64,000 bases of DNA from assembly GCF_001417775.1 (NCBI RefSeq), contig NZ_BBZJ01000014.1:248001-312000 (forward strand), read 5' to 3'. Every line of letters begins with the position of its first letter. Position 1 is the stretch's first letter. This DNA is from Streptomyces sp. TP-A0356. Lineage in GTDB: Bacteria > Actinomycetota > Actinomycetes > Streptomycetales > Streptomycetaceae. The notes beneath the pieces are model-generated. The model saw nothing but the letters and a program-made list of their open reading frames with translations, was not told the DNA's origin and did not search any database. Both the position numbers and the translations under genes were made by a program. This document shows, piece by piece, positions 35,329 to 45,044 of this stretch.

Positions 35329-36210
35329 ATGGTAGGCACCTTCGTCGTGGTCGTACTGCTGGCCGTGCTGGCCCTGCTCGTACTGCGCAGCGGGATGCGG
35401 GTCGTCAACCAGGTGGAGCGCGGCGTCGTGTTCCGCTGGGGGAAGGCGCTGCCGCAGCACCGGCAGCCGGGCATCACGTTCCTGATCCCGTACGCCGACC
35501 GGATGCGCAAGGTGAACGTGCAGGTGGTGACCCTGCCGATCCCGACCCAGGAGGGCATCACCAAGGACAACGTCTCGGTCAAGGTCGACGCCGTCGTATA
35601 CTTCCGGGTCACGGATCCGGTACGGGCCGCGATCGAGGTCCAGGACTACGTGTTCGCCGTCGGGCAGGTCGCCCAGTCCTCGCTGCGGTCCATCATCGGC
35701 AAGAGCGACCTCGACGATCTGCTGTCCGACCGTGAGCGGCTGCACGAGGGGCTCGCCGTGATGATCGACAGCCCGGCCGCCGGCTGGGGCGTGCACATCG
35801 ACCGGGTCGAGATCAAGGACGTCCAGCTGCCGGAGTCCCTGAAGCGGTCCATGTCCCGGCAGGCCGAGGCGGAACGGGAACGACGGGCACGGGTCATCAC
35901 GGCGGACGGTGAGTTCCAGGCGGCCCAGCAGCTCGCGAACGCGTCCCGCATCATGTCGGACACGCCCGAGGCGATGCAGCTGCGTCTGCTCCAGACGGTC
36001 GTGGAGGTCGCCGCCGAGAAGAACTCGACGCTGGTGATGCCGTTCCCGGTGGAACTCCTGCGGTACTTCGACCGCGCGGCCCGTAACCTCGGCGCCGGTC
36101 AGGAGACCGCGCCGGCGCCGACCGGGGCCCCTTCGCCCGACGCCCGTCCGGCGCCCGCGCCCGCCGCGTCACGCGACCCGCGCGTCACCGAGCCTCCGGC
36201 CCAGGCGTAA
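35329..36210 (+). CDS. SPFH/band-7 (slipin-like) membrane protein
   Basis: A 293-residue stomatin/slipin-type protein. An N-terminal hydrophobic segment (VGTFVVVVLLAVLALLVLRS) anchors it; the band-7 domain follows (VNQVERGVVFRWGKALPQHR, VSVKVDAVVYFRVTDPVRA, LRSIIGKSDLDDLLSDR), then a coiled coil (SRQAEAERERRARVITADGE) and an Ala/Pro-rich disordered tail. SPFH proteins form membrane rings that scaffold proteases or signalling complexes. A second, diverged SPFH-like protein is encoded 1.4 kb away on the other strand, so the two may share a membrane assembly with the intervening DUF4407 protein. Confidence 0.9.
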   Translation: MVGTFVVVVLLAVLALLVLRSGMRVVNQVERGVVFRWGKALPQHRQPGITFLIPYADRMRKVNVQVVTLPIPTQEGITKDNVSVKVDAVVYFRVTDPVRAAIEVQDYVFAVGQVAQSSLRSIIGKSDLDDLLSDRERLHEGLAVMIDSPAAGWGVHIDRVEIKDVQLPESLKRSMSRQAEAERERRARVITADGEFQAAQQLANASRIMSDTPEAMQLRLLQTVVEVAAEKNSTLVMPFPVELLRYFDRAARNLGAGQETAPAPTGAPSPDARPAPAPAASRDPRVTEPPAQA

Positions 36211-36253: not shown

Positions 36254-37600
36254 TCACATCCTCCCCGGCCCCAGGATCCGCGCCATCCTCGCCTCCAGTT
36301 CCGCCCGTTCGTCGGCCGCGCGCTCGCTCCGCAGGGCGCGGTACTCGTGTTCCAGGCCCCGCATGCGGTCGGTCGTCTCCTGTTCGACCCGGTGGCGCTG
36401 CACCTCGTGTTCCATGCGCGCACACGCCTGCTGGACCTGGAGTTCCTCGGTGTGCAGACGGCGGCTCGCCTCGAAGCGGGCGCCGAGCAGGGTGTCGTAC
36501 GTCGTGGCGCCGCTCATGAACTTGGCCAGTACGGGCAGCGAGTCGAGGGCCACCAGCAGCAGGTGGAGGACGACCGTCAGGAAGAAGGCGAAGCCGTCCG
36601 AACCGGCGACGCTCTTGAGAGCGTGCGCCCGGGTCAGGATGCCGTCGGTGTCGAGGTCGCCCGCCCGCTGCCGCGTCTTGGCGTCGATGGCCTTCTGCAG
36701 CACCGGCTGGTACGCGTCGGCCGCCCCGTCCTTCTGAGCGGACAGGGTACGGCCCTTGGCGACCAGGTCCGCGAGCTCCTTCTCGTACGTCGACACCTTG
36801 CTGGTGGTGCGGTACGACGACGAGTCCTGGCGTGCCCGCTCGCAGGTGATGGTGACGTCCCTGCCGCCGCCCCGCCAGATCCAGTGGTCCGGCCCGCACT
36901 CGCGCTGCTCGGTGGCCATCTTGTCGTTCAGCGTCTTGTTGATCGCGTCGACCTGGGTCTGGAGCGCCTTGGTGCGGGCGGCGTTGCTCTGGATCTGCGC
37001 GGCCAGCTCGGCGGGCGAGCCCGCCACCTTCAGCTGGTACCGGAGGCACTCCGGTCGGGCTGCCGTGGACGCGCCGTCGGTGGGGTTGCAGGAGACGAGC
37101 ATGCCGCGGTAGTCGGCCACCGTGCGTTCGTTGCCGACGGCGACCTCCTGGCGGATCTCCTTGTCGAAGATCTGGAAGAGGATCGGCTCGGCGATGAACA
37201 CACCGAGGAGCACCGACAACAGGAAGCGGAGTATGAGTGTCCACTTCTTCACGGCCGTGCCATGGGTGCTCGACACCAGCCAGCTGTCCATCGCGAGGAT
37301 CACCCAGAACCACACCACGGCGACCACGAGCACGGCCGGCAACGGCAGATCGGGACGGAAGCTGGTGAGCGCCAGGCTCATGGACAGGGCCCCGAGCAGC
37401 GCCGTGTTGCCGACGAGCGCGCCGTACCAGGTGTAACGGGCGCGTTCCTCCGGCACCCAGGCGAGCAGCTCCTCGTCGATGCCGATGAGCCGACGCAGCC
37501 GGACCGGAAGGCCACGGCCGCGCGGCACCGGGCGCACGGATCCCCGGTGGTCGTCGAAGGAGGCACTGTCCGGGGGCCGGACCGGAGTGTCAGTGGCCAA
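36254..37600 (-). CDS. DUF4407-family membrane protein
   Basis: A 448-residue protein from TTG 37600 (GGAGG six bases upstream). The front has GIDEELLAWVPEERARYTWY and four transmembrane helices in two pairs (around YGALVGNTALLGALSMSLAL and LILRFLLSVLLGVFIAEPIL), with LAMDSWLVSS between them as in other DUF4407 proteins. A long soluble, partly helical loop with several Cys (SCNPTDG, ECGPD) lies between helices 3 and 4, and the C-terminal 100 residues are a charged coiled coil. The function of the family is unknown. It overlaps the upstream gene by 11 bases and ends the cyclase operon. Confidence 0.8.
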   Translation of the reverse strand: MATDTPVRPPDSASFDDHRGSVRPVPRGRGLPVRLRRLIGIDEELLAWVPEERARYTWYGALVGNTALLGALSMSLALTSFRPDLPLPAVLVVAVVWFWVILAMDSWLVSSTHGTAVKKWTLILRFLLSVLLGVFIAEPILFQIFDKEIRQEVAVGNERTVADYRGMLVSCNPTDGASTAARPECLRYQLKVAGSPAELAAQIQSNAARTKALQTQVDAINKTLNDKMATEQRECGPDHWIWRGGGRDVTITCERARQDSSSYRTTSKVSTYEKELADLVAKGRTLSAQKDGAADAYQPVLQKAIDAKTRQRAGDLDTDGILTRAHALKSVAGSDGFAFFLTVVLHLLLVALDSLPVLAKFMSGATTYDTLLGARFEASRRLHTEELQVQQACARMEHEVQRHRVEQETTDRMRGLEHEYRALRSERAADERAELEARMARILGPGRM

Positions 37601-39131
37601 GGGACGCCTCCGAGTCCGTACCGCCGAGGTCGAGGTCGCCGTCGTCGCCGCCGTCGTACTCGACCGCGTCGCCCTCCTTGGCCGGCTGCGGGATGCGCTG
37701 CAGCTCGCCCTTCTGCAGCTCCCGCTCTCCACCCTGGCGCAGCGGCTGGGCCTGGGTGTACGGGATGTCGCCCACGTTGTTGATGAAGGCGCCGGCGTCG
37801 TACATGGTGCTGTCGATCAGGCCGCGGTCGATGACCTGCTTGCTCAGCCCGACCTTGGCCGCCAGTTGCTCCCGGCGCCACTCGCGCTGGTCGTGCTGCA
37901 GCCGCTGGGCGTCCTCCCGGTTCTCCTGGCGCTGGCGCAGCCGGTCCTCGCGCTCCAGATCCCAGCGGCGGCTCTGCTCCTGTTGCCGGGCGGCCGCCTC
38001 GTCCCGTTCCGCCTGCCGGGTCAGCGCCAGGCGCTTCTCGTCCCGTTCCACCTGCCAGCGCTGGTCCTCCCGGGCGAACGCACGCTGCTTGAGCTGCTCC
38101 TCGCGCTCCAGCCGGGCCCGTTCCGTCTGCTTCTGGTCCCGGTACTGCTCCGCCTCGCGCAGCCGCCCGGCGAGTTGGTCGGCGGTGATGTCGCCGTTGC
38201 GCCAGGCGTTGAAGTCCGCGGCCAGCGGGTCGGAGCCGATCACCTCGAAGTCGGCGGCGAGCTGGTCGCGCACGAAGTGGTTGCGCTCGGCTTCGAGGGT
38301 GAGGTCGTGCCTCTGGCGTTCGGTGCCGGCCCCGAACTCGTAGTGCGTCCGCAGCGTCTCGTACTCCTGGCGGTTGCGCTCCTTGCTGAGCTCCTCCTCC
38401 TGCCGGTTGCGCTCCTTGAGACGGGCGTTCAGGTTCCGGATCTCCTCCTGCTTCAGCTCCAGCTCGGCCTCGGCGAGGGCCTTGTCCAGGGCCCGCTGCT
38501 GCTTCAGGTCCTCCAGCTCGCGGTCCAGCTCCCGGGCCCGCCTGGCGTCCTGGATCTGCTTGAGGTGCGCGGCGAGTTCCTCCGGAGTGAGGACCTCGAC
38601 GAGGCCGCTGCGGGCCCGCAGGCCCGACACGACGGGCGGATGCATCTCGTGATACGCCGTCAGGCGGGCGGATATCCGGTCGCGTACGGCGGCGGACTCG
38701 ACGATCGGCCGGTCGCCGCCGTCCTCGGTGAGTCCCGGCACCCTGCGGAGGTGGCTGAGCAGCAGCGCCTCCACGTCCGTGATCCCGTCGCGCACGACCG
38801 CGCAGGCGTCCGTGACCGTGCAGTAGAACGTGACCCGTACGGTGAAGTCGCCCGCCTCGGCGGACGGGATGCGTGTCTCCACGACTACGGGCACCTCGAC
38901 ACGCCGGTCGACGACCGTGACGGAGCCGGCCTCGACCACCACCGGGTCGTCGGGCCGCAGGTGCCCCTGGTCCTCGACGTACTGCTCGCCGACCCGGAAG
39001 ACCCTCACATGGTGCGCGGCGAGCCGGGGCAGCTCGTCCGCCTCCCGCATCGCGCGCCTGTTCAGCCAGCCGCCGCGCTTCTCCGGCGGCCCGTACTCCC
39101 GCTGCTCGACCAGCGGGTATCTCTCGGCCAT
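37590..39131 (-). CDS. SPFH-like coiled-coil protein
   Basis: A 513-residue protein. Residues about 40-190 resemble a diverged band-7 domain: strands around VRVFRVGEQYVEDQGHL, VEVPVVVETRIP, FTVRVTFYCTVTDACAVV, then GLVEVLTPEELAAHLKQIQD. Residues 190-460 are almost entirely charged coiled coil rich in Glu, Arg and Gln. The C-terminus is acidic and Gly-rich. No transmembrane helix is visible, unlike typical SPFH proteins, so it may assemble under the membrane with the DUF4407 protein. It starts five bases after the NTPase stop. I infer a structural or scaffolding role. Confidence 0.65.
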   Translation of the reverse strand: MAERYPLVEQREYGPPEKRGGWLNRRAMREADELPRLAAHHVRVFRVGEQYVEDQGHLRPDDPVVVEAGSVTVVDRRVEVPVVVETRIPSAEAGDFTVRVTFYCTVTDACAVVRDGITDVEALLLSHLRRVPGLTEDGGDRPIVESAAVRDRISARLTAYHEMHPPVVSGLRARSGLVEVLTPEELAAHLKQIQDARRARELDRELEDLKQQRALDKALAEAELELKQEEIRNLNARLKERNRQEEELSKERNRQEYETLRTHYEFGAGTERQRHDLTLEAERNHFVRDQLAADFEVIGSDPLAADFNAWRNGDITADQLAGRLREAEQYRDQKQTERARLEREEQLKQRAFAREDQRWQVERDEKRLALTRQAERDEAAARQQEQSRRWDLEREDRLRQRQENREDAQRLQHDQREWRREQLAAKVGLSKQVIDRGLIDSTMYDAGAFINNVGDIPYTQAQPLRQGGERELQKGELQRIPQPAKEGDAVEYDGGDDGDLDLGGTDSEASLGH

Positions 39132-39136
39132 ACGTG

Positions 39137-41347
39137 TCAGTCCTCCGTGCTCAGTACGGCGGTAAGGAAGGTGTCGATCAGGGGGGCGGCCGGCTCGTCG
39201 GGGCGCGCCGCGATCGGCCGCAGGACCGTGCTCAGCAGCCGGCGCTCGGTCGGCTGGAGGGCCGTGCCCAGGGCGTCACCGAAGCGCGCGGCCACCGGCT
39301 CCGGCTGCTCGCACACGGTGGGCAGGGCGCGCAGGGTGGCGTTGAGGCCCCGCAGCGCCAGGGCCTGGCGCGGCCGGTTGCCCAGCACGCCCGCCCACAA
39401 CTCGCCCAGCTTGTCGATCAGTTCGGGTTGCCGCTCCATCACTTCGGCGCAGACGAGCCGTCCGGTACGCGTGTCGCGCGCCCGCAGGACGGTCAGCACG
39501 GCGTCCAGGGTGCTCTCCTTGCGGTGCCCGGCGGCCAGCGTTCCGCGCTGGACGGCGAGCCGGTAGGCGAGCGCACGGAACACCACGCCGGTGTCCTCGT
39601 GGCACTCCGCGAGGACGGAGACGAGATCGGCCAGGGCGGCCGCCGCCTCCATGGGCCGGCCGGCGCGCCGGCCGATCAGCCGCAGCAGTGTGTGCACGGC
39701 GTCCGTGGGGAAGCGCACGCCGAGCGCCCCGCTGAACACCGTCGTCGCCGTCGACCACAGCGCCGGGTCGGGTGCGCGGACCCAGTCGCGGGCGACGCCG
39801 AGCGCGATGGCGGCCAGTCCCTCGTCCAGGCACATCCACTGCAGCACCAGGGTGGCCGTGGACTGTCCGGCAGGGCCCGCCGCGCCGCCGGCCCAGGGGT
39901 GCAGACAGCTCTCCGCGACCTCGTCGAAGGCGGGCCGGGCGAGCAGGGCGAGACCGGCGGCGACGGACAGCTGCAGCCCGGGGTCGGGCTGGGTGCGCAG
40001 GAGTTCGGTGAGCCAGTTCCGCACCCCGTTCCAGTACGAGGTCGACCGCGTGGCCCACAGCTCCTCCAGTACCCACTGCCGGTACTGGGGGTTGGGGAAG
40101 ACCAGCACCGTGCGGGTCAGCGCTCCCTGCTTCCGCTTCTCGACGGCGACCAGGGTGTTGCGGTTCAGCGAGAACCGGCGGTCGACGGCCGGCCGGGGCG
40201 CGTCGGCCGCCGCGCCCTCGGCGGGCGGTTCCCACACGGCCGGGGCCAGCCACTCCTCCAGCCGCTCCTGGCAGGTCTCGAAGTCGCGGTAGCCGGCCCC
40301 GGTGACGAAGGCCAGCGTGGTCACCTCGGCCAGCTCCTGCAACGAGCGCTCCGCCGCGAACCAGTCGCGCACGGGCCTGGCCGCACTGCTGCCGTACTCC
40401 CGCCAGACCTCGGCGGGGTCGGACCCGCGCGCGATCCGGTCGGCCGCCACGGCGACCTCCGTGATCCCGCACCCGGCGGGCAGCAGGGCGACGGCCTGCT
40501 CGACGGTGTCCCCGGCGCAGCCGGCCCGCACCAGCCGCACCCGCAGGACGGCCGCCAGGTCCGGAAGCTGCCAGGGCACATGGCGTACGGAGCCGGGCGC
40601 CTCCCCTTCCACCTGGTGGACGGTGGTGACCACCAGGTGGGCGCCGCTCTCCCGCACGGTGTCCCGGACGCGACGCCAGTCGAAGTCCGCCGTCCCGGAC
40701 GGTCCGTCGTGCATCCGGTCGAGCAGCACATACCCGACGCCCTTCTCGAAGGCGGGGCGCCCGGTGGCGAGATCCTCCAGGCTGCGGCCCGGGGAGAGCA
40801 CCACGTACTCCCTGCCCCCGGCGACGGCGGCGACGAGGGCCACCGCCCCGGACCGCTTCCCGGTGCCTGGCGGCCCGACGAGGACCACCACACCGTCCTG
40901 CTGAAGGGCGAGCACGGCCTCGTCGAAGCACGGGGGCTCCACATAGGACGCCAGCACCACGTCCGCCTCACCCGCGTCGAGGCGGCCGACCGCGCGGCGC
41001 CGGGCGTTGGCGGAGTCGGCGGAGCCGATGCCGAAGAGGGCCTGCGTGGCGTCCAGGGCACCGTAGAAGTACTGGTTGACGTTGTTGTGGTGCACCTGGC
41101 CGGCGGCCCCCTCGGCGCGGGAACCCTGGTCGGCGGCCCCCTCGTCCCGCGGACCCTGGCCGTCGGCGCCGGGGACTGGTCCCTCCTGAGCGGGGGCCAC
41201 CGGCTCCTGCGTGGGCGCTCCTTGCGTCGGGGCCCCGTGGTCCGGGGGCGGGACGACCGCCCCCGCGAGGTCCTCAGGGGCGGATCCGGCTTCCGGCTGT
41301 CCGCCCTGGGCTCTCGGTTCGCCCTGTTCTTTTCGTTCCTCGTACAT
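39137..41347 (-). CDS. STAND-like P-loop NTPase with N-terminal signalling motif
   Basis: A 736-residue protein. Residues 1-84 are disordered and Pro/Gln/Gly-rich. Residues 88-108 form a motif shared with the C-terminus of the adjacent cyclase. An NTPase domain follows: Walker A GPPGTGKRS (158-166), a Walker-B-like GYVLLDRMHDG, and further STAND-type helices (LPDLAAVLRVRLVRAG, WLTELLRTQP). The C-terminal 300 residues are helical repeats. No enzymatic effector domain is fused, so it probably works as the sensor or switch, passing a signal through the shared motif. It is 18 bases downstream of the cyclase stop. The recognised trigger is unknown. Confidence 0.75.
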   Translation of the reverse strand: MYEERKEQGEPRAQGGQPEAGSAPEDLAGAVVPPPDHGAPTQGAPTQEPVAPAQEGPVPGADGQGPRDEGAADQGSRAEGAAGQVHHNNVNQYFYGALDATQALFGIGSADSANARRRAVGRLDAGEADVVLASYVEPPCFDEAVLALQQDGVVVLVGPPGTGKRSGAVALVAAVAGGREYVVLSPGRSLEDLATGRPAFEKGVGYVLLDRMHDGPSGTADFDWRRVRDTVRESGAHLVVTTVHQVEGEAPGSVRHVPWQLPDLAAVLRVRLVRAGCAGDTVEQAVALLPAGCGITEVAVAADRIARGSDPAEVWREYGSSAARPVRDWFAAERSLQELAEVTTLAFVTGAGYRDFETCQERLEEWLAPAVWEPPAEGAAADAPRPAVDRRFSLNRNTLVAVEKRKQGALTRTVLVFPNPQYRQWVLEELWATRSTSYWNGVRNWLTELLRTQPDPGLQLSVAAGLALLARPAFDEVAESCLHPWAGGAAGPAGQSTATLVLQWMCLDEGLAAIALGVARDWVRAPDPALWSTATTVFSGALGVRFPTDAVHTLLRLIGRRAGRPMEAAAALADLVSVLAECHEDTGVVFRALAYRLAVQRGTLAAGHRKESTLDAVLTVLRARDTRTGRLVCAEVMERQPELIDKLGELWAGVLGNRPRQALALRGLNATLRALPTVCEQPEPVAARFGDALGTALQPTERRLLSTVLRPIAARPDEPAAPLIDTFLTAVLSTED

Positions 41348-41365
41348 CCTCAGCCGTCACTCGGG

Positions 41366-42118
41366 TCACTTGGAGATTCCGAAGACGGCGCCCTCGGCGT
41401 GGACGGTTCCATGGAAGGACTGAACTACCGTGTCTCTGGGAGTAGTTGGCGCACTCAGGGGGCGCGCGCCGGCCCCTTCACCACCCCCGCCCCCACCACC
41501 ACCGCCGGCGTGCGGCCCGTCGCCGTCCAGACCCAGCGCCCGGACGTCGTATCCGGGCACCCAGACCCACGCCCGCCCCGCGTACTCCTTCTCCTCGATC
41601 AGCACCTCGCGGAACTCCTGCGCCCGGATGGTGGTGTAGGCCTCGCGGACCACGTCGTTGAAGACGGTCGCCGAGACCGCGACGGCCAGGCACGCCCCCG
41701 GTGCCGCGGCCAGGGCGGCCCGCAGCACCCTGCTGTCCAGCATCCGGCCGATCTCGACGGGGGCGCGGCCGACGAAGCCGTTGGCCGCCGGGGACGCCGT
41801 GCCGAAGTGCACCACGGCCCGCAGGCGCAGCCATGCCTCCGGCAGCCGACCGTGGTTGAAGGCCCGCAGGCCGGCGTCCAGCTGCCGCATGAAGGTGTCG
41901 ACGAGGGCCGGCTCCGAAGCTCCCTCGGGCAGGACGGCGAGCACCGAGTCACCGGCCTCCTGTGTGCTCCACCGCTCCCGCTGCAGACCGGCCACGGCGG
42001 CGGCCTCCCCGAGCAGCCGCTGGATGGCCTCCTGCAACTGCCGCTGCGTCAGGACGTCGACGCCCCCGTAGCCCTTCGCGTCGACCGCCAGCAGCAGTCT
42101 GCGCCCGAACGTTTCCAT
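41366..42118 (-). CDS. Nucleotidyl-cyclase-like protein with C-terminal amyloid-like motif
   Basis: A 250-residue class III cyclase-like protein. LLLAVDAKGYGG has the first metal Asp (13), QEAGDSVLAVLP the second (57), and LRLRAVVHFGTA the conserved strand of these cyclases; the product nucleotide cannot be told. A poly-Gly/Ala linker (about 204-222) leads to residues 229-249, which align without gaps with residues 88-108 of the neighbouring NTPase. A Pycsar-effector-like membrane protein is encoded divergently 400 bases away, so a pyrimidine cyclic nucleotide is a reasonable guess. It is the first gene of the four-gene operon. Confidence 0.72.
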   Translation of the reverse strand: METFGRRLLLAVDAKGYGGVDVLTQRQLQEAIQRLLGEAAAVAGLQRERWSTQEAGDSVLAVLPEGASEPALVDTFMRQLDAGLRAFNHGRLPEAWLRLRAVVHFGTASPAANGFVGRAPVEIGRMLDSRVLRAALAAAPGACLAVAVSATVFNDVVREAYTTIRAQEFREVLIEEKEYAGRAWVWVPGYDVRALGLDGDGPHAGGGGGGGGGEGAGARPLSAPTTPRDTVVQSFHGTVHAEGAVFGISK

Positions 42119-42523
42119 GCTTGAACTCCCCGCTCACTCAATGGAGTCACACCCCAGTGCCCCTCGGGTCCGGGGCGCGCTCCGGAACACGGCCGGCGTC
42201 CGCTCCCCCGGGCGCGGACGCCGGTACGCCAGTGGTACACGTCGCGCCCCGCGCGGACCCCGTCGAAATACGGGATGTGGTAGAAGGCGAAAACATACAA
42301 GGGCCGACGGACGTTACGGGCGGGTTCAGGAAGAGGGGAGTGCGGAATCGGACAGGGGGTTCACCACACGACCAGCCGAGCCCCGGAGCCCAAACGCCGA
42401 GGAATCCCGCAAGGCGGCCGCAGGCCCGCAAGAACGCCGAATCCCGCCCAAATGCCAGGTCCTTCCGCCGGCGAGCGGGTGTACTCGGTGACGACGAGCG
42501 TGCCACCGACCCGAGGAGGCCGT
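42119..42523. promoter_or_regulatory. Divergent promoter region, cyclase operon and membrane effector
   Basis: About 400 bases separate the two divergent starts and should hold both promoters. GAGGAGG at 42513-42519 is the ribosome site of the effector gene. I could not identify a convincing Crp-type palindrome by eye, although a Crp-family gene is close by. Confidence 0.4.
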
Positions 42524-43051
42524 ATGCCGTCCGCCGGTGCCGACCCGGACGACCGCCCCGCGCGGTACATGTTCACCGCCCTGCAAACCGCCCACCAGCA
42601 CGCCGACACGAAGGCCGGGATCCTGGCGGCCGCGCAGGCGGCGCTGGTCGGCACGGCGGGCTCCTGGAGCGGACAGGCCCTGCACACCGCGGAACGCGGC
42701 GGGGCGGCGGGGGTGCTCGCCGGATCCCTGCTCGCGCTGTTCCTCGTCGGGCTGTTCGGCGGTGCGGGCTTCCTGGCCGCCACCCTGCGGCCCAGGGTGC
42801 TGCGCTCCGCCGAGGCCAACCGGTACGGCTTCGCCCATCTCGCGACGGGACCCGACATCCTTCCGGCAGAGGGTGCGGAGGATCCGGACGGTGACGTGGT
42901 CGTGGAGCGGCGGGAGTTGTCGCGGGCGATCCGGTTCCTCGCCCGCGTGGCCCTGCGCAAGTACCGGTGCCTGACCGGCGCTGTGGTGTGCACGACCGTG
43001 ATGGGTGTCAGCGCCGGGCTGCTCGTGGCGCTGTGCCCGTTGCTGTCCTGA
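42524..43051 (+). CDS. Pycsar-effector-like transmembrane protein
   Basis: A 175-residue membrane protein. It opens with a helix HQHADTKAGILAAAQAALVG whose DTKAG motif is characteristic of the Pycsar effector TM (PycTM/DUF5706-like) family. A strong hydrophobic hairpin (AGSLLALFLVGLFGGAGFLA) and a C-terminal membrane helix (CTTVMGVSAGLLVALCPLL) follow, with a soluble acidic loop between. In Pycsar systems such proteins permeabilise the inner membrane when they bind cCMP or cUMP made by a phage-activated cyclase. A cyclase-like gene is divergent from it. The assignment rests on the motif, topology and context. Confidence 0.65.
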   Translation: MPSAGADPDDRPARYMFTALQTAHQHADTKAGILAAAQAALVGTAGSWSGQALHTAERGGAAGVLAGSLLALFLVGLFGGAGFLAATLRPRVLRSAEANRYGFAHLATGPDILPAEGAEDPDGDVVVERRELSRAIRFLARVALRKYRCLTGAVVCTTVMGVSAGLLVALCPLLS

Positions 43052-43069: not shown

Positions 43070-43768
43070 TCACTCCTCGGGCCCCAGATCCGCAAGCCAT
43101 CTGAGCCGGGGCAGATCACGGATGGTGGTGGAGCGGTAGCCGGTCTCCAGCAGGCCGTCCTCGCGCAGTTCCCGCAGCGCCTTCTGGACCGTGGACTCGG
43201 CCGCCCCGGTGAGCGCGGCGATCTCCGGCTGGGTCAGCCGGCAGCCGACGACCACGCCACCGTCGACCGGCTGGCCGTAGGCGGTGGCGAGTTCCACCAG
43301 CAGCCGGGCCAGCCGTACCTTCGCCGGATAGCCGCGGAACTCCAGGCGCCGCCGGTTGGCCCAGCGCAGCCGGTCGGCGACGATCCTGGTCAGGGCCATG
43401 GACACCTCCGGCCGCCGCATCATCAGGGCGTGCAGCACACCGGGTTGCAGCACCCGGGCCGTCATGGGACCGCAGGCCGTCACCGTGGCGGAGCGCGGCG
43501 AACCGTCCATGGCCGCCATCTCCCCGACCGTGTCACCACCGAAACGGACGGCGAGCAACGACGTCTCCCCGTTCTCCACCCTCGCCGTCACCTTGGCGAA
43601 GCCGGAGAGCAGTACCAGGACGTGCCGGTCGTGCGCGCCCTCGCTCAGGAGCACATCGCCCGGCTCGAACGGTCTCTCCGCCCCCAGCTGGAGCAGTTCC
43701 TGCCGGACCGGCGGCGACAGCACCCCCAGCAGGCTGCGTACGGGCCACTCCGCGGAGCTGTAGGGCAT
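43070..43768 (-). CDS. Crp/Fnr-family regulator
   Basis: A 232-residue regulator from ATG 43768 (GGAG upstream). The cyclic-nucleotide-binding domain keeps the phosphate-binding cassette (TVGEMAAMDGSPRSATVTA, with its Glu and Arg). A helix-turn-helix follows (LTQPEIAALTGAAESTVQKA, LRELREDGLLE). It converges with the effector gene. Because the ligand-binding residues are intact it may sense the product of the local cyclase and adjust expression of the system; this is inference. Alternatively it belongs to an unrelated regulon, since Crp-type genes are common in Streptomyces. Confidence 0.85.
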   Translation of the reverse strand: MPYSSAEWPVRSLLGVLSPPVRQELLQLGAERPFEPGDVLLSEGAHDRHVLVLLSGFAKVTARVENGETSLLAVRFGGDTVGEMAAMDGSPRSATVTACGPMTARVLQPGVLHALMMRRPEVSMALTRIVADRLRWANRRRLEFRGYPAKVRLARLLVELATAYGQPVDGGVVVGCRLTQPEIAALTGAAESTVQKALRELREDGLLETGYRSTTIRDLPRLRWLADLGPEE

Positions 43769-43817
43769 GACGCGCTCTCCCCATGCGACGGCGAATACCC
43801 CTCCATGCTGCCGCTGA

Positions 43818-45044
43818 TCACATCGCCGGGCGACGGACTTGCTCCACACCGTCCTGCGCGGCCCCGGAACCACCCGCGACGCCCCGCGGCCGGCGCCTGG
43901 CCGCCGCCGCCAGCGTCAGCGTCACCCCCACCGACCCGGCAGCCATCACCGTCATCGCCACCGCCGGCGCGGTGAGTTGGGCCACCGCTCCCGCCAGTGC
44001 CGCGCTCACGCCCTGCATCGTGAGCCTGCCCGCCGAGTCCAGGCCCAGGGCGTGACCGCTCAGTCCCTCCGGGACCAGGGCCATCAGGCGCTCCTGCTGG
44101 ACGAGGCCCGCGCTGAAGCCGACCGAGGCCAGAGCCACACAAACGGCCGCCACCGGTACGGCGGGACGCAGGGCGAACAGCAGATACGGGGTCGCCAGGA
44201 GCAGCAGGAGCGGGATGCCGAGGCGGCGGCGCAGGGCGAGCGGCAGGATGCGGCCCGTGGTGACGTCCCCGACGAACATGCCGAACGCCGCGCACGCGAA
44301 CAGCACACCGGCCCGGTCCGGCGCGTAGGACACGTACAGCGACTCGCAGCCGACGACCAGGCCGTTCGGGACCCACAGGAGGAGGTAGACGGTCCAGCGT
44401 TCCCGGGACGACCACAGCAGCGCGTTGGTGCGCCAGGTCCCCGCGACCGAGGGGCGGCCCGCGGTGCGGGGGGCGCGGCGGGTCAGGCCGGACCGGGCCG
44501 CCAGGGCCCCGCCCAGGTGGAGCGCCGCGGCCGTCAGGAGCGTCCCGCGCGAGGAGAGCAGCGCCACCAGGACGCCTCCGGTCGCGTAACCGGTGATCTG
44601 CATGATCCCGTTCATCATGTTGAAGGCCGAACGGCCCAGCAGATAGCCGTTGTCGGGCAGGATCTCGTTCAGCAGGCCCCAGCGGACCCCACCGCCGAGC
44701 GACTGGACCAGGCCGAGGACCAGGATCAGGGCGAAGACCGCCGCGATCGGCAGGCCCGGTGCCGCCAGCAGCGCCGTACCGGCCGCGAACGCGCACGCGA
44801 TGCCCGTCATCGTCGCGCGCGGCGGCAGTCGGTCCGCCGCCGACAGCAGCGTCGTCGCGCCCACGACCTGCGCCAGCTGCGGGCCGAACATGCTGACCGC
44901 GGACAGCAGCGGTGAGTCGGTGGCGCGGTACACCAGTGTGCCGAGGGCCAGGCCGCCCAGGGTCGAGGCGGCCGTCTGGAGGGCGGTGGACAGGAAGAGC
45001 GGGGTGAACTCCCGGGAGCGGAAGAGATCGGAGTAGCTGCGCAT
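43818..45044 (-). CDS. MFS transporter
   Basis: A 408-residue major facilitator protein with about 12 helices (for example AAVFALILVLGLVQSLGGGV, IPLLLLLATPYLLFALRPAV). DRLPPRATMTGI resembles the conserved loop between helices 2 and 3, and GRSAFNMMNGIMQITGYATG is helix 5. Typical of drug-efflux-like members of unknown substrate. It is divergent from an ArsR-like regulator gene, with a perfect palindrome in the 78-base gap, which suggests inducible export. The C-terminus is short and basic. Confidence 0.87.
   Translation of the reverse strand: MRSYSDLFRSREFTPLFLSTALQTAASTLGGLALGTLVYRATDSPLLSAVSMFGPQLAQVVGATTLLSAADRLPPRATMTGIACAFAAGTALLAAPGLPIAAVFALILVLGLVQSLGGGVRWGLLNEILPDNGYLLGRSAFNMMNGIMQITGYATGGVLVALLSSRGTLLTAAALHLGGALAARSGLTRRAPRTAGRPSVAGTWRTNALLWSSRERWTVYLLLWVPNGLVVGCESLYVSYAPDRAGVLFACAAFGMFVGDVTTGRILPLALRRRLGIPLLLLLATPYLLFALRPAVPVAAVCVALASVGFSAGLVQQERLMALVPEGLSGHALGLDSAGRLTMQGVSAALAGAVAQLTAPAVAMTVMAAGSVGVTLTLAAAARRRPRGVAGGSGAAQDGVEQVRRPAM

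What the first reader, a model, noticed from the sequence alone, without database searches (positions are those of the whole stretch)
41024..42118. Gapless motif shared by the cyclase C-terminus and the NTPase N-terminus
NTPase residues 88-108 and cyclase residues 229-249 align over 21 positions without a gap. Nine are identical (V, Q, F, G, A, A, F, G, I at matching places) plus two L/V pairs. In both proteins the motif is attached to the globular domain by a disordered or poly-Gly linker, at opposite termini, with nothing else alike. Published bacterial amyloid signalling motifs sit in this arrangement: at the ends of an NLR/STAND protein and of a neighbouring effector. The inference is that the NTPase templates the cyclase through the motif.
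Basis: partly seen in the sequence, partly recalled or inferred. Interest (0 to 1): 0.95.

Follow-up and report, generated by a model that had tools for sequence, protein, structure and literature searches.

The report
Swappable motif wires ATPase to cyclase
In Streptomyces, a STAND-type ATPase and the nucleotide cyclase encoded next to it carry closely similar short motifs near opposite ends, and related gene sets change both copies together, so the ATPase likely switches on the cyclase of a Pycsar-like, presumed defence system by motif-to-motif assembly.

Summary
In detail: NTPase 88-108 and cyclase 229-249 align without a gap with nine identities. Alone that is not significant (124 of 200 whole-protein shuffles reach nine). 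Homologues decide it. The motif pattern is found in 94 of 100 NTPase and 56 of 120 cyclase homologues, 0 when reversed. The two profiles align gaplessly (hhalign E 1.3e-7, score 44.5; best of 50 column-shuffled controls 15.5). A profile of NTPase motifs from other strains, run over the 8.4-Mb host genome, finds the NTPase, then the cyclase tail, then only E 5.2. The strongest evidence lies outside the window: related cyclases carry unrelated tails, and the adjacent STAND protein carries the matching motif. One STAND-TPR family shows three motifs, each matching its own cyclase. The cyclase has a class III fold and sits beside a PycTM (Pycsar effector) gene and a Crp-type cyclic-nucleotide regulator. 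I read this as a STAND-gated, Pycsar-like signalling system in which the motif pair likely co-assembles to activate the cyclase. Amyloid nature, direction, nucleotide and antiphage role are untested. Covariation inside the window's own motif class was not significant.

The parts
41372..41434 (-). C-terminal motif of the cyclase, residues 229-249 (DTVVQSFHGTVHAEGAVFGIS)
   Evidence: Sequence; pattern G(8-9)FG[ILVFTA] in the last 45 residues of 56 of 120 cyclase homologues, 0 of 120 reversed; one of the 56, P0107, is a chance hit and P0011 is a near miss with Glu for Gly
41024..41086 (-). N-terminal motif of the NTPase, residues 88-108 (NNVNQYFYGALDATQALFGIG)
   Evidence: Sequence; motif pattern in 94 of 100 NTPase homologues, 0 of 100 reversed; alternating conservation as in a beta strand
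41366..42118 (-). Class III nucleotide cyclase-like enzyme with Gly-rich linker and C-terminal motif
39137..41347 (-). nSTAND3 NTPase, candidate sensor, motif near the end of its N-terminal linker
   Evidence: Pfam nSTAND3 E 2.5e-6, residues 135-184; P-loop VGPPGTGKR in the sequence
42524..43051 (+). PycTM-type membrane effector, divergent from the cyclase
   Evidence: PADLOC PycTM E 1.1e-9; Pfam PycTM E 3.2e-6 for the longer ORF 42452-43051
43070..43873 (-). Crp/Fnr-type regulator with cyclic-nucleotide-binding domain
   Evidence: Pfam cNMP_binding E 1e-16, HTH_Crp_2 E 1.1e-14; Crp-like ORF in 61 of 68 fetched cyclase loci, strain duplicates included
37590..39131 (-). Protein of unassigned family, looks like a long coiled coil (by eye, not tested), follows the NTPase
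   Evidence: No Pfam match below E 0.1; homologue in 19 of 21 class A loci (two misses lie at contig ends), 10 of 10 A-prime loci, L091 and L089, and in 0 of 34 other loci
36254..37732 (-). DUF4407 membrane protein, last gene of the cassette
   Evidence: Pfam DUF4407 E 1e-55; same distribution as the previous gene, plus L082

Best explanation
A STAND NTPase and an adjacent class III-type nucleotide cyclase share one short motif near opposite ends, and the NTPase is predicted to switch the cyclase on by motif-to-motif, likely cross-beta, co-assembly. Proposed sequence: the nSTAND3 NTPase senses a trigger and oligomerises (inferred from the STAND family); its clustered N-terminal motifs nucleate an ordered beta assembly (inferred); cyclase tails join it, bringing cyclase domains together, and since class III sites form at dimer interfaces (established for that family, recalled) this would raise activity (inferred); the cyclic nucleotide would then act on PycTM in the membrane and on the Crp-type regulator (inferred from their families). 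Shown by calls: the motif, its conservation and specificity, the class III fold with invariant Asp pair and Arg, the PycTM and Crp neighbours, and the joint exchange of tail and partner motif between gene sets.
For: Conserved motif beside variable linkers on both sides. Profile-profile E 1.3e-7 and, for pre-cut motifs, 1.3e-10. NTPase-only profile without window rows hits, in the whole host genome, the NTPase (6e-13) and the cyclase tail (4.8e-4), next 5.2. Own partner outranks all partners of other families in 34 of 52 loci; about 1.8 expected if ranks were random (my arithmetic). STAND-TPR partners 68-75% identical between classes carry three motifs B, C, C2; each tail scores best with its own class: 81-103 and 51 within a class, 26-53 across. 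Ten changes of tail class at the least on a quick catalytic-domain tree, 122 of 128 rows labelled, eight if C and C2 are merged. Beta-strand-like alternation of conservation on the NTPase side, most extreme of 462 splits with the pattern-fixed position left out; charge and proline depleted in motif against linker. PycTM model hits in 9 of 9 preselected proteins; Crp-like ORF in 61 of 68 loci; class III fold.
Against: Pair alone within chance of an open search. Within class A, 32 pairs, no significant covariation once relatedness is removed: partial Mantel r 0.096, p 0.14; matched versus permuted p 0.11. A cyclase-only profile finds the cyclase but not the NTPase in the host genome. In 18 of 52 loci the own partner does not rank first, 6 of them class D (of 8), one class A and one A-prime; L112 ranks first without beating shuffles, p 0.29. 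No significant similarity of the window motif to published amyloid peptides. On the cyclase side the alternation is only a trend (54 of 462). PADLOC's PycC model matches 1 of 30 family members, E 0.005, and not the window. The class III Asn is Val121 here, so activity is unproven.
Confidence: 0.6

Rival explanations
1. The motif is a homotypic docking element without amyloid: a pair of beta strands that joins one cyclase to one NTPase in a finite complex, tethering or inhibiting the cyclase until the NTPase changes shape.
For: Everything that shows pairing and swapping fits equally. The window motif does not resemble the amyloid peptides compared.
Against: Near-identical sequence on both partners at flexible ends, low charge and low proline, and many unrelated motifs doing the same job are the published pattern of amyloid signalling motifs (passages of PMC7889193). 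A finite dock would more readily use complementary than alike partners (inference).
Confidence: 0.25
2. Both motifs bind the same third partner, for example the conserved coiled-coil-like or DUF4407 protein, which brings NTPase and cyclase together.
For: These two genes follow the NTPase in 19 of 21 class A loci and 10 of 10 class A-prime loci.
Against: Classes B and C show the same tail-partner match in loci where no homologue of these genes was found, and no third carrier of the motif appears in the host genome below E 0.44.
Confidence: 0.08
3. Shared descent without function: the tail and the NTPase N-terminus are relics of a fused ancestor or of recombination across the gene boundary.
For: The genes are adjacent, so exchange across the boundary is easy; within-class covariation is not significant.
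Against: Linkers vary while the motif stays; the match recurs with several unlike motifs (A and A-prime, B, C, C2, L104 type, L105), with different partner families, and at partner C-termini in L104, L107 and L110.
Confidence: 0.05
4. Chance similarity of Gly/Ala-rich low-complexity ends.
For: Nine identities are common in shuffles of the whole proteins.
Against: Profile comparison with column-shuffled and reversed controls, and whole-genome search.
Confidence: 0.02

Closest known systems
Bacterial amyloid signalling sequences (BASS), NLR/BELL gene pairs
   Same: Short motif at the N-terminus of a STAND/NLR protein and at the C-terminus of the adjacent gene's product; many unlike motif families; [quoted passage not shown]
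   Different: Receiver is a nucleotide cyclase, probably with a second-messenger output, not BELL, CHAT or TIR as named in those passages; window motif does not match the two BASS3-type peptides compared; BASS profiles were not available here
[quoted passage not shown]
   Same: Class III-fold cyclase next to a PycTM effector gene
   Different: Additional STAND NTPase, Crp regulator, coiled-coil-like and DUF4407 genes; PADLOC's PycC model misses 29 of 30 family members including the window; substrate unknown
Effector-associated domains (EADs) of VMAP and iSTAND systems
   Same: Homotypic element shared by a core component and an effector or cyclase, often of the adjacent gene (passages of PMC7159879 and PMC8195603)
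   Different: EADs are described there as small, mostly alpha-helical domains; here about 22 residues with beta-like conservation beside a disordered linker

Membership tests
BASS amyloid signalling motif | Motif shared by N-terminus of a STAND/NLR protein and C-terminus of the adjacent gene's product | tested here: met
BASS amyloid signalling motif | Sequence belongs to one of BASS1-10 | tested here: inconclusive
   No significant similarity to two BASS3-type peptides; the ten profiles could not be obtained
BASS amyloid signalling motif | Forms amyloid and cross-seeds | not testable with these tools
   Only indirect signs: alternation, low charge, low proline
Pycsar | PycTM or PycTIR effector beside the cyclase | tested here: met
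   PADLOC PycTM E 1.1e-9 for 42524-43051
Pycsar | Cyclase of the PycC clades | tested here: inconclusive
   PADLOC PycC model: no match for the window, 1 of 30 relatives at E 0.005; no PycC chain was compared directly
Pycsar | Makes cUMP or cCMP and protects from phage | not testable with these tools
   The position four before the second metal Asp (base-recognition site in known cyclases, partly recalled, partly) is Gln53, invariant in 110 rows; this does not tell the nucleotide
Class III nucleotide cyclase | Class III cyclase fold | tested here: met
Class III nucleotide cyclase | Two metal-binding Asp and transition-state Arg | tested here: met
   D13, D57, R125 invariant in 30 of 30; their roles are recalled from the family
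Class III nucleotide cyclase | Asn four residues before that Arg (recalled) | tested here: not met
   Val121 in the window; Asn in L109, L111 and L112 of the same family
STAND NTPase (nSTAND3) | nSTAND3 domain above Pfam cut-off | tested here: met
   27.7 bits against cut-off 27.2: marginal; relatives L098 and L105 are below it
Effector-associated domain | Small folded, mostly helical domain | tested here: not met
   22-residue motif; residues 201-250 of the cyclase have block-mean pLDDT under 60 and no secondary structure in the model

The most novel reading that the evidence does not exclude
Actinobacteria run a modular family of Pycsar-like systems in which an interchangeable set of amyloid-type address motifs wires each STAND sensor to its own second-messenger cyclase; the motif works as a barcode that is replaced on both proteins at once, keeping parallel immune circuits insulated, and it is the switch by which these cyclases are turned on.
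Probability: 0.42. Interest if true: 0.9.

Novelty: new variant of a known kind. Interest (0 to 1): 0.78.

Why it matters
How Pycsar-type cyclases are switched on is, as far as I recall, an open question; here a candidate sensor and a candidate switch sit in one operon with a one-motif test. It would extend amyloid-type immune signalling to second-messenger enzymes, and the natural motif swaps supply ready-made specificity controls (classes A, B, C, C2). In the listings of my ten library searches (most show only the top of a longer list) I saw no paper describing a STAND-cyclase pair joined by such a motif. The library lacks most subscription papers, including the Pycsar founding paper; the BASS founding paper was known to me only through passages citing it.

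Tried and rejected
Chance match: kept alive, made unlikely. Covariation inside class A: tested, not significant (39 pairs used; protein pairs were taken as neighbours because their longest contigs have the same length; rows dropped: P0042/P0123 for a one-residue insertion, P0033/P0162, L093 and L094 for no pattern hit, L011 and L019 as duplicates). Cyclase-side profile finding the NTPase: weak in relatives (17 of 100 at E<0.01) and failed in the host genome. Similarity to published amyloid peptides: 39 comparisons, best p 0.028, for a class B motif, not significant. Phage-borne copies: no match in 50,697 records. PDB by single sequence: the 60 rows shown are nearly all scFv chains, matched through the poly-Gly linker. 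First AF2 model from 23 rows was poor, pLDDT 52, and was not used. I saw no PycC chain among the listed PDB rows, which excludes nothing. Class D tails: own partner not first in 6 of 8 loci; a weak recurring match inside the NTPase was seen and left open. Automatic partner choice failed or gave none in several loci (for example L107, L102, L091, L096); one search found the L091 and L096 partner motifs by pattern. My first count of motif alternation and of tail-class changes held a position fixed by the search pattern and one mislabelled row; both were redone.

Full report
Check of the observation. The cyclase ORF 41366-42118(-) ends in DTVVQSFHGTVHAEGAVFGISK and the NTPase ORF 39137-41347(-) holds NNVNQYFYGALDATQALFGIGS at residues 88-109. 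On this pair alone the match is not beyond chance: shuffles of both whole proteins reach nine in 124 of 200 trials, while shuffles of the motif against NTPase 1-160 do so in 2 of 5000.

Homologues. Protein searches gave 188 cyclase relatives (120 listed) and 100 NTPase relatives; all that bear a source name are Streptomyces. The motif pattern is present in the last 45 residues of 56 of 120 cyclases (one, P0107, by chance; P0011 is a near miss) and in the first 330 residues of 94 of 100 NTPases; reversed sequences give 0 of 120 and 0 of 100. The stretch between residue 190 and the motif varies from 24 to 72 residues in 54 cyclases. hhalign of 54 cyclase tails against 73 NTPase N-termini (of 97 that the script could cut out of 100; 24 with a GPQY-type motif were set apart and align more weakly, E 8.1e-4) aligns 24 columns without a gap, E 1.3e-7, score 44.5; the reversed control scores 10.4 and the best of 50 column-shuffled controls 15.5. 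Two 12-row motif profiles without window rows align at E 1.3e-10, though those rows were cut to the motif beforehand.

Specificity in the genome. A profile built from both sides finds, in the 8.4-Mb host genome, the cyclase tail (4e-13) and the NTPase (2e-11), then E 0.44 (the window rows were in that model). The NTPase-only profile without window rows finds the NTPase (6e-13), the cyclase tail (4.8e-4) and then E 5.2. The cyclase-only profile finds the cyclase but not the NTPase; its next matches, from 0.16, lie elsewhere.

Swapping. Cyclases 65-74% identical to the window's in the catalytic domain carry unlike tails, and L022 (class C) and L080 (class D) do so at 82%. Class B (L023, L024): tail SLHSGDGSAIVVGNGGNASVTNG, partner YLRSGEGSAIVVGDGGTATAIN. 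Class C (L022, L087): tail YTLHVASGGAAAQGPGASAVVNN, partner YEGHASDGGALAQGPGATATVNN. Class C2, on a mobilizable plasmid (L128): tail SFVQNVSGGTGIQAENATLTIT, partner TYVQNVGPDGWGVQSTNATINV. The partners of these three classes belong to one family, 68-75% identical between classes over the part compared (TPR repeats shown for L024 and annotated for L128), yet each tail scores best with partners of its own class: 81-103 and 51 within a class, 26-53 across. More distant loci show the same with other motifs: A-prime (nine loci among L092-L101), L105 and, at the C-terminus of a 151-residue neighbour, L104, L107 and L110; by eye also L106, L108, L109, L112 and L114. In a uniform test on 52 loci (16 of 68 left out: four strain duplicates, one partial contig, ten without a partner ORF by rule, one tail under 30 residues) the own partner beats every partner of other families in 34 of 52: 17 of 18 class A, 8 of 9 A-prime, 4 of 4 B and C, 2 of 8 D, 3 of 13 others; random ranks would give about 1.8 (my arithmetic from that table). 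These loci are not independent: most are relatives. On a quick tree of catalytic domains, 122 of 128 rows labelled with six tail classes need at least ten changes of class, eight if C and C2 are merged.

Limits of the covariation. Over 39 class A and A-prime pairs, matched motifs score 40.2 against 35.0 permuted, p 2e-4, and the partial Mantel r is 0.17, p 0.04; this rests on the difference between the two classes. Inside class A (32 pairs) matched pairs are not better than permuted ones (p 0.11) and the partial correlation controlling for catalytic and NTPase domains is 0.096, p 0.14; for seven A-prime pairs the partial correlation has p 0.007 but matched pairs do not exceed permuted ones, p 0.77.

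Mechanism. Conservation on the NTPase side alternates, odd positions 3-13 nearly fixed and even ones free: the most extreme of 462 splits when position 9, fixed by the search pattern, is left out; the cyclase side shows a trend only (54 of 462). Charged residues make up 6% and 5% of the cyclase (53) and NTPase (23) motifs against 21% and 32% of the stretches before them, proline 1% and 4% against 13% and 17%. This suits a beta-arch that stacks on itself, the published design of amyloid signalling motifs at NLR N-termini and effector C-termini (passages of PMC7889193). I therefore propose: trigger, NTPase oligomerisation, motif nucleation, recruitment of cyclase tails, cyclase activation by proximity, cyclic nucleotide acting on PycTM and on the Crp regulator. 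Each of these steps is inferred; what is shown is the shared, jointly exchanged motif and the kinds of genes.

Comparison. It would work like a BASS gene pair whose executioner is replaced by a second-messenger enzyme, feeding a Pycsar-type effector. It is not filed as BASS: the window motif matches none of the three amyloid peptides compared (letters from the section of PMC8086366 read) and the profiles were not available. It is not filed as Pycsar proper: the PycC model misses the window cyclase and the nucleotide is unknown. Kaur et al. describe homotypic domains linking cores to effectors and cyclases, but as folded domains (passages of PMC7159879 and PMC8195603). Pycsar residue data come from passages of PMC11224242.

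Noticed in passing
   Followed up: no
   Followed up: partly
L029 7986-11356: Both the cyclase and the NTPase of this class A locus are split over two reading frames.
   Followed up: no
L018, L021, L025-L027, L080, L081, L083, L129: Class D cyclases carry a longer tail of about 60 residues with another large NTPase as neighbour; only a weak, recurring similarity to an internal stretch of that NTPase was seen.
   Followed up: partly
L104, L107, L110 and L106, L108: In cyclases of another genus the tail resembles the C-terminus of a small neighbour (151 to 289 residues) instead of an NTPase N-terminus, suggesting an adaptor version.
   Followed up: partly
L128 (plasmid NZ_CP107897.1): Crp, PycTM, cyclase and STAND-TPR genes sit between insertion sequences and an integrase on a mobilizable plasmid; the record names the PycTM gene 'Pycsar system effector family protein'.
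   Followed up: partly
window 35329-36210: Band_7 gene convergent with the cassette; about 90% identical neighbours in L002, L004 and L005 suggest ordinary chromosomal flank.
   Followed up: no
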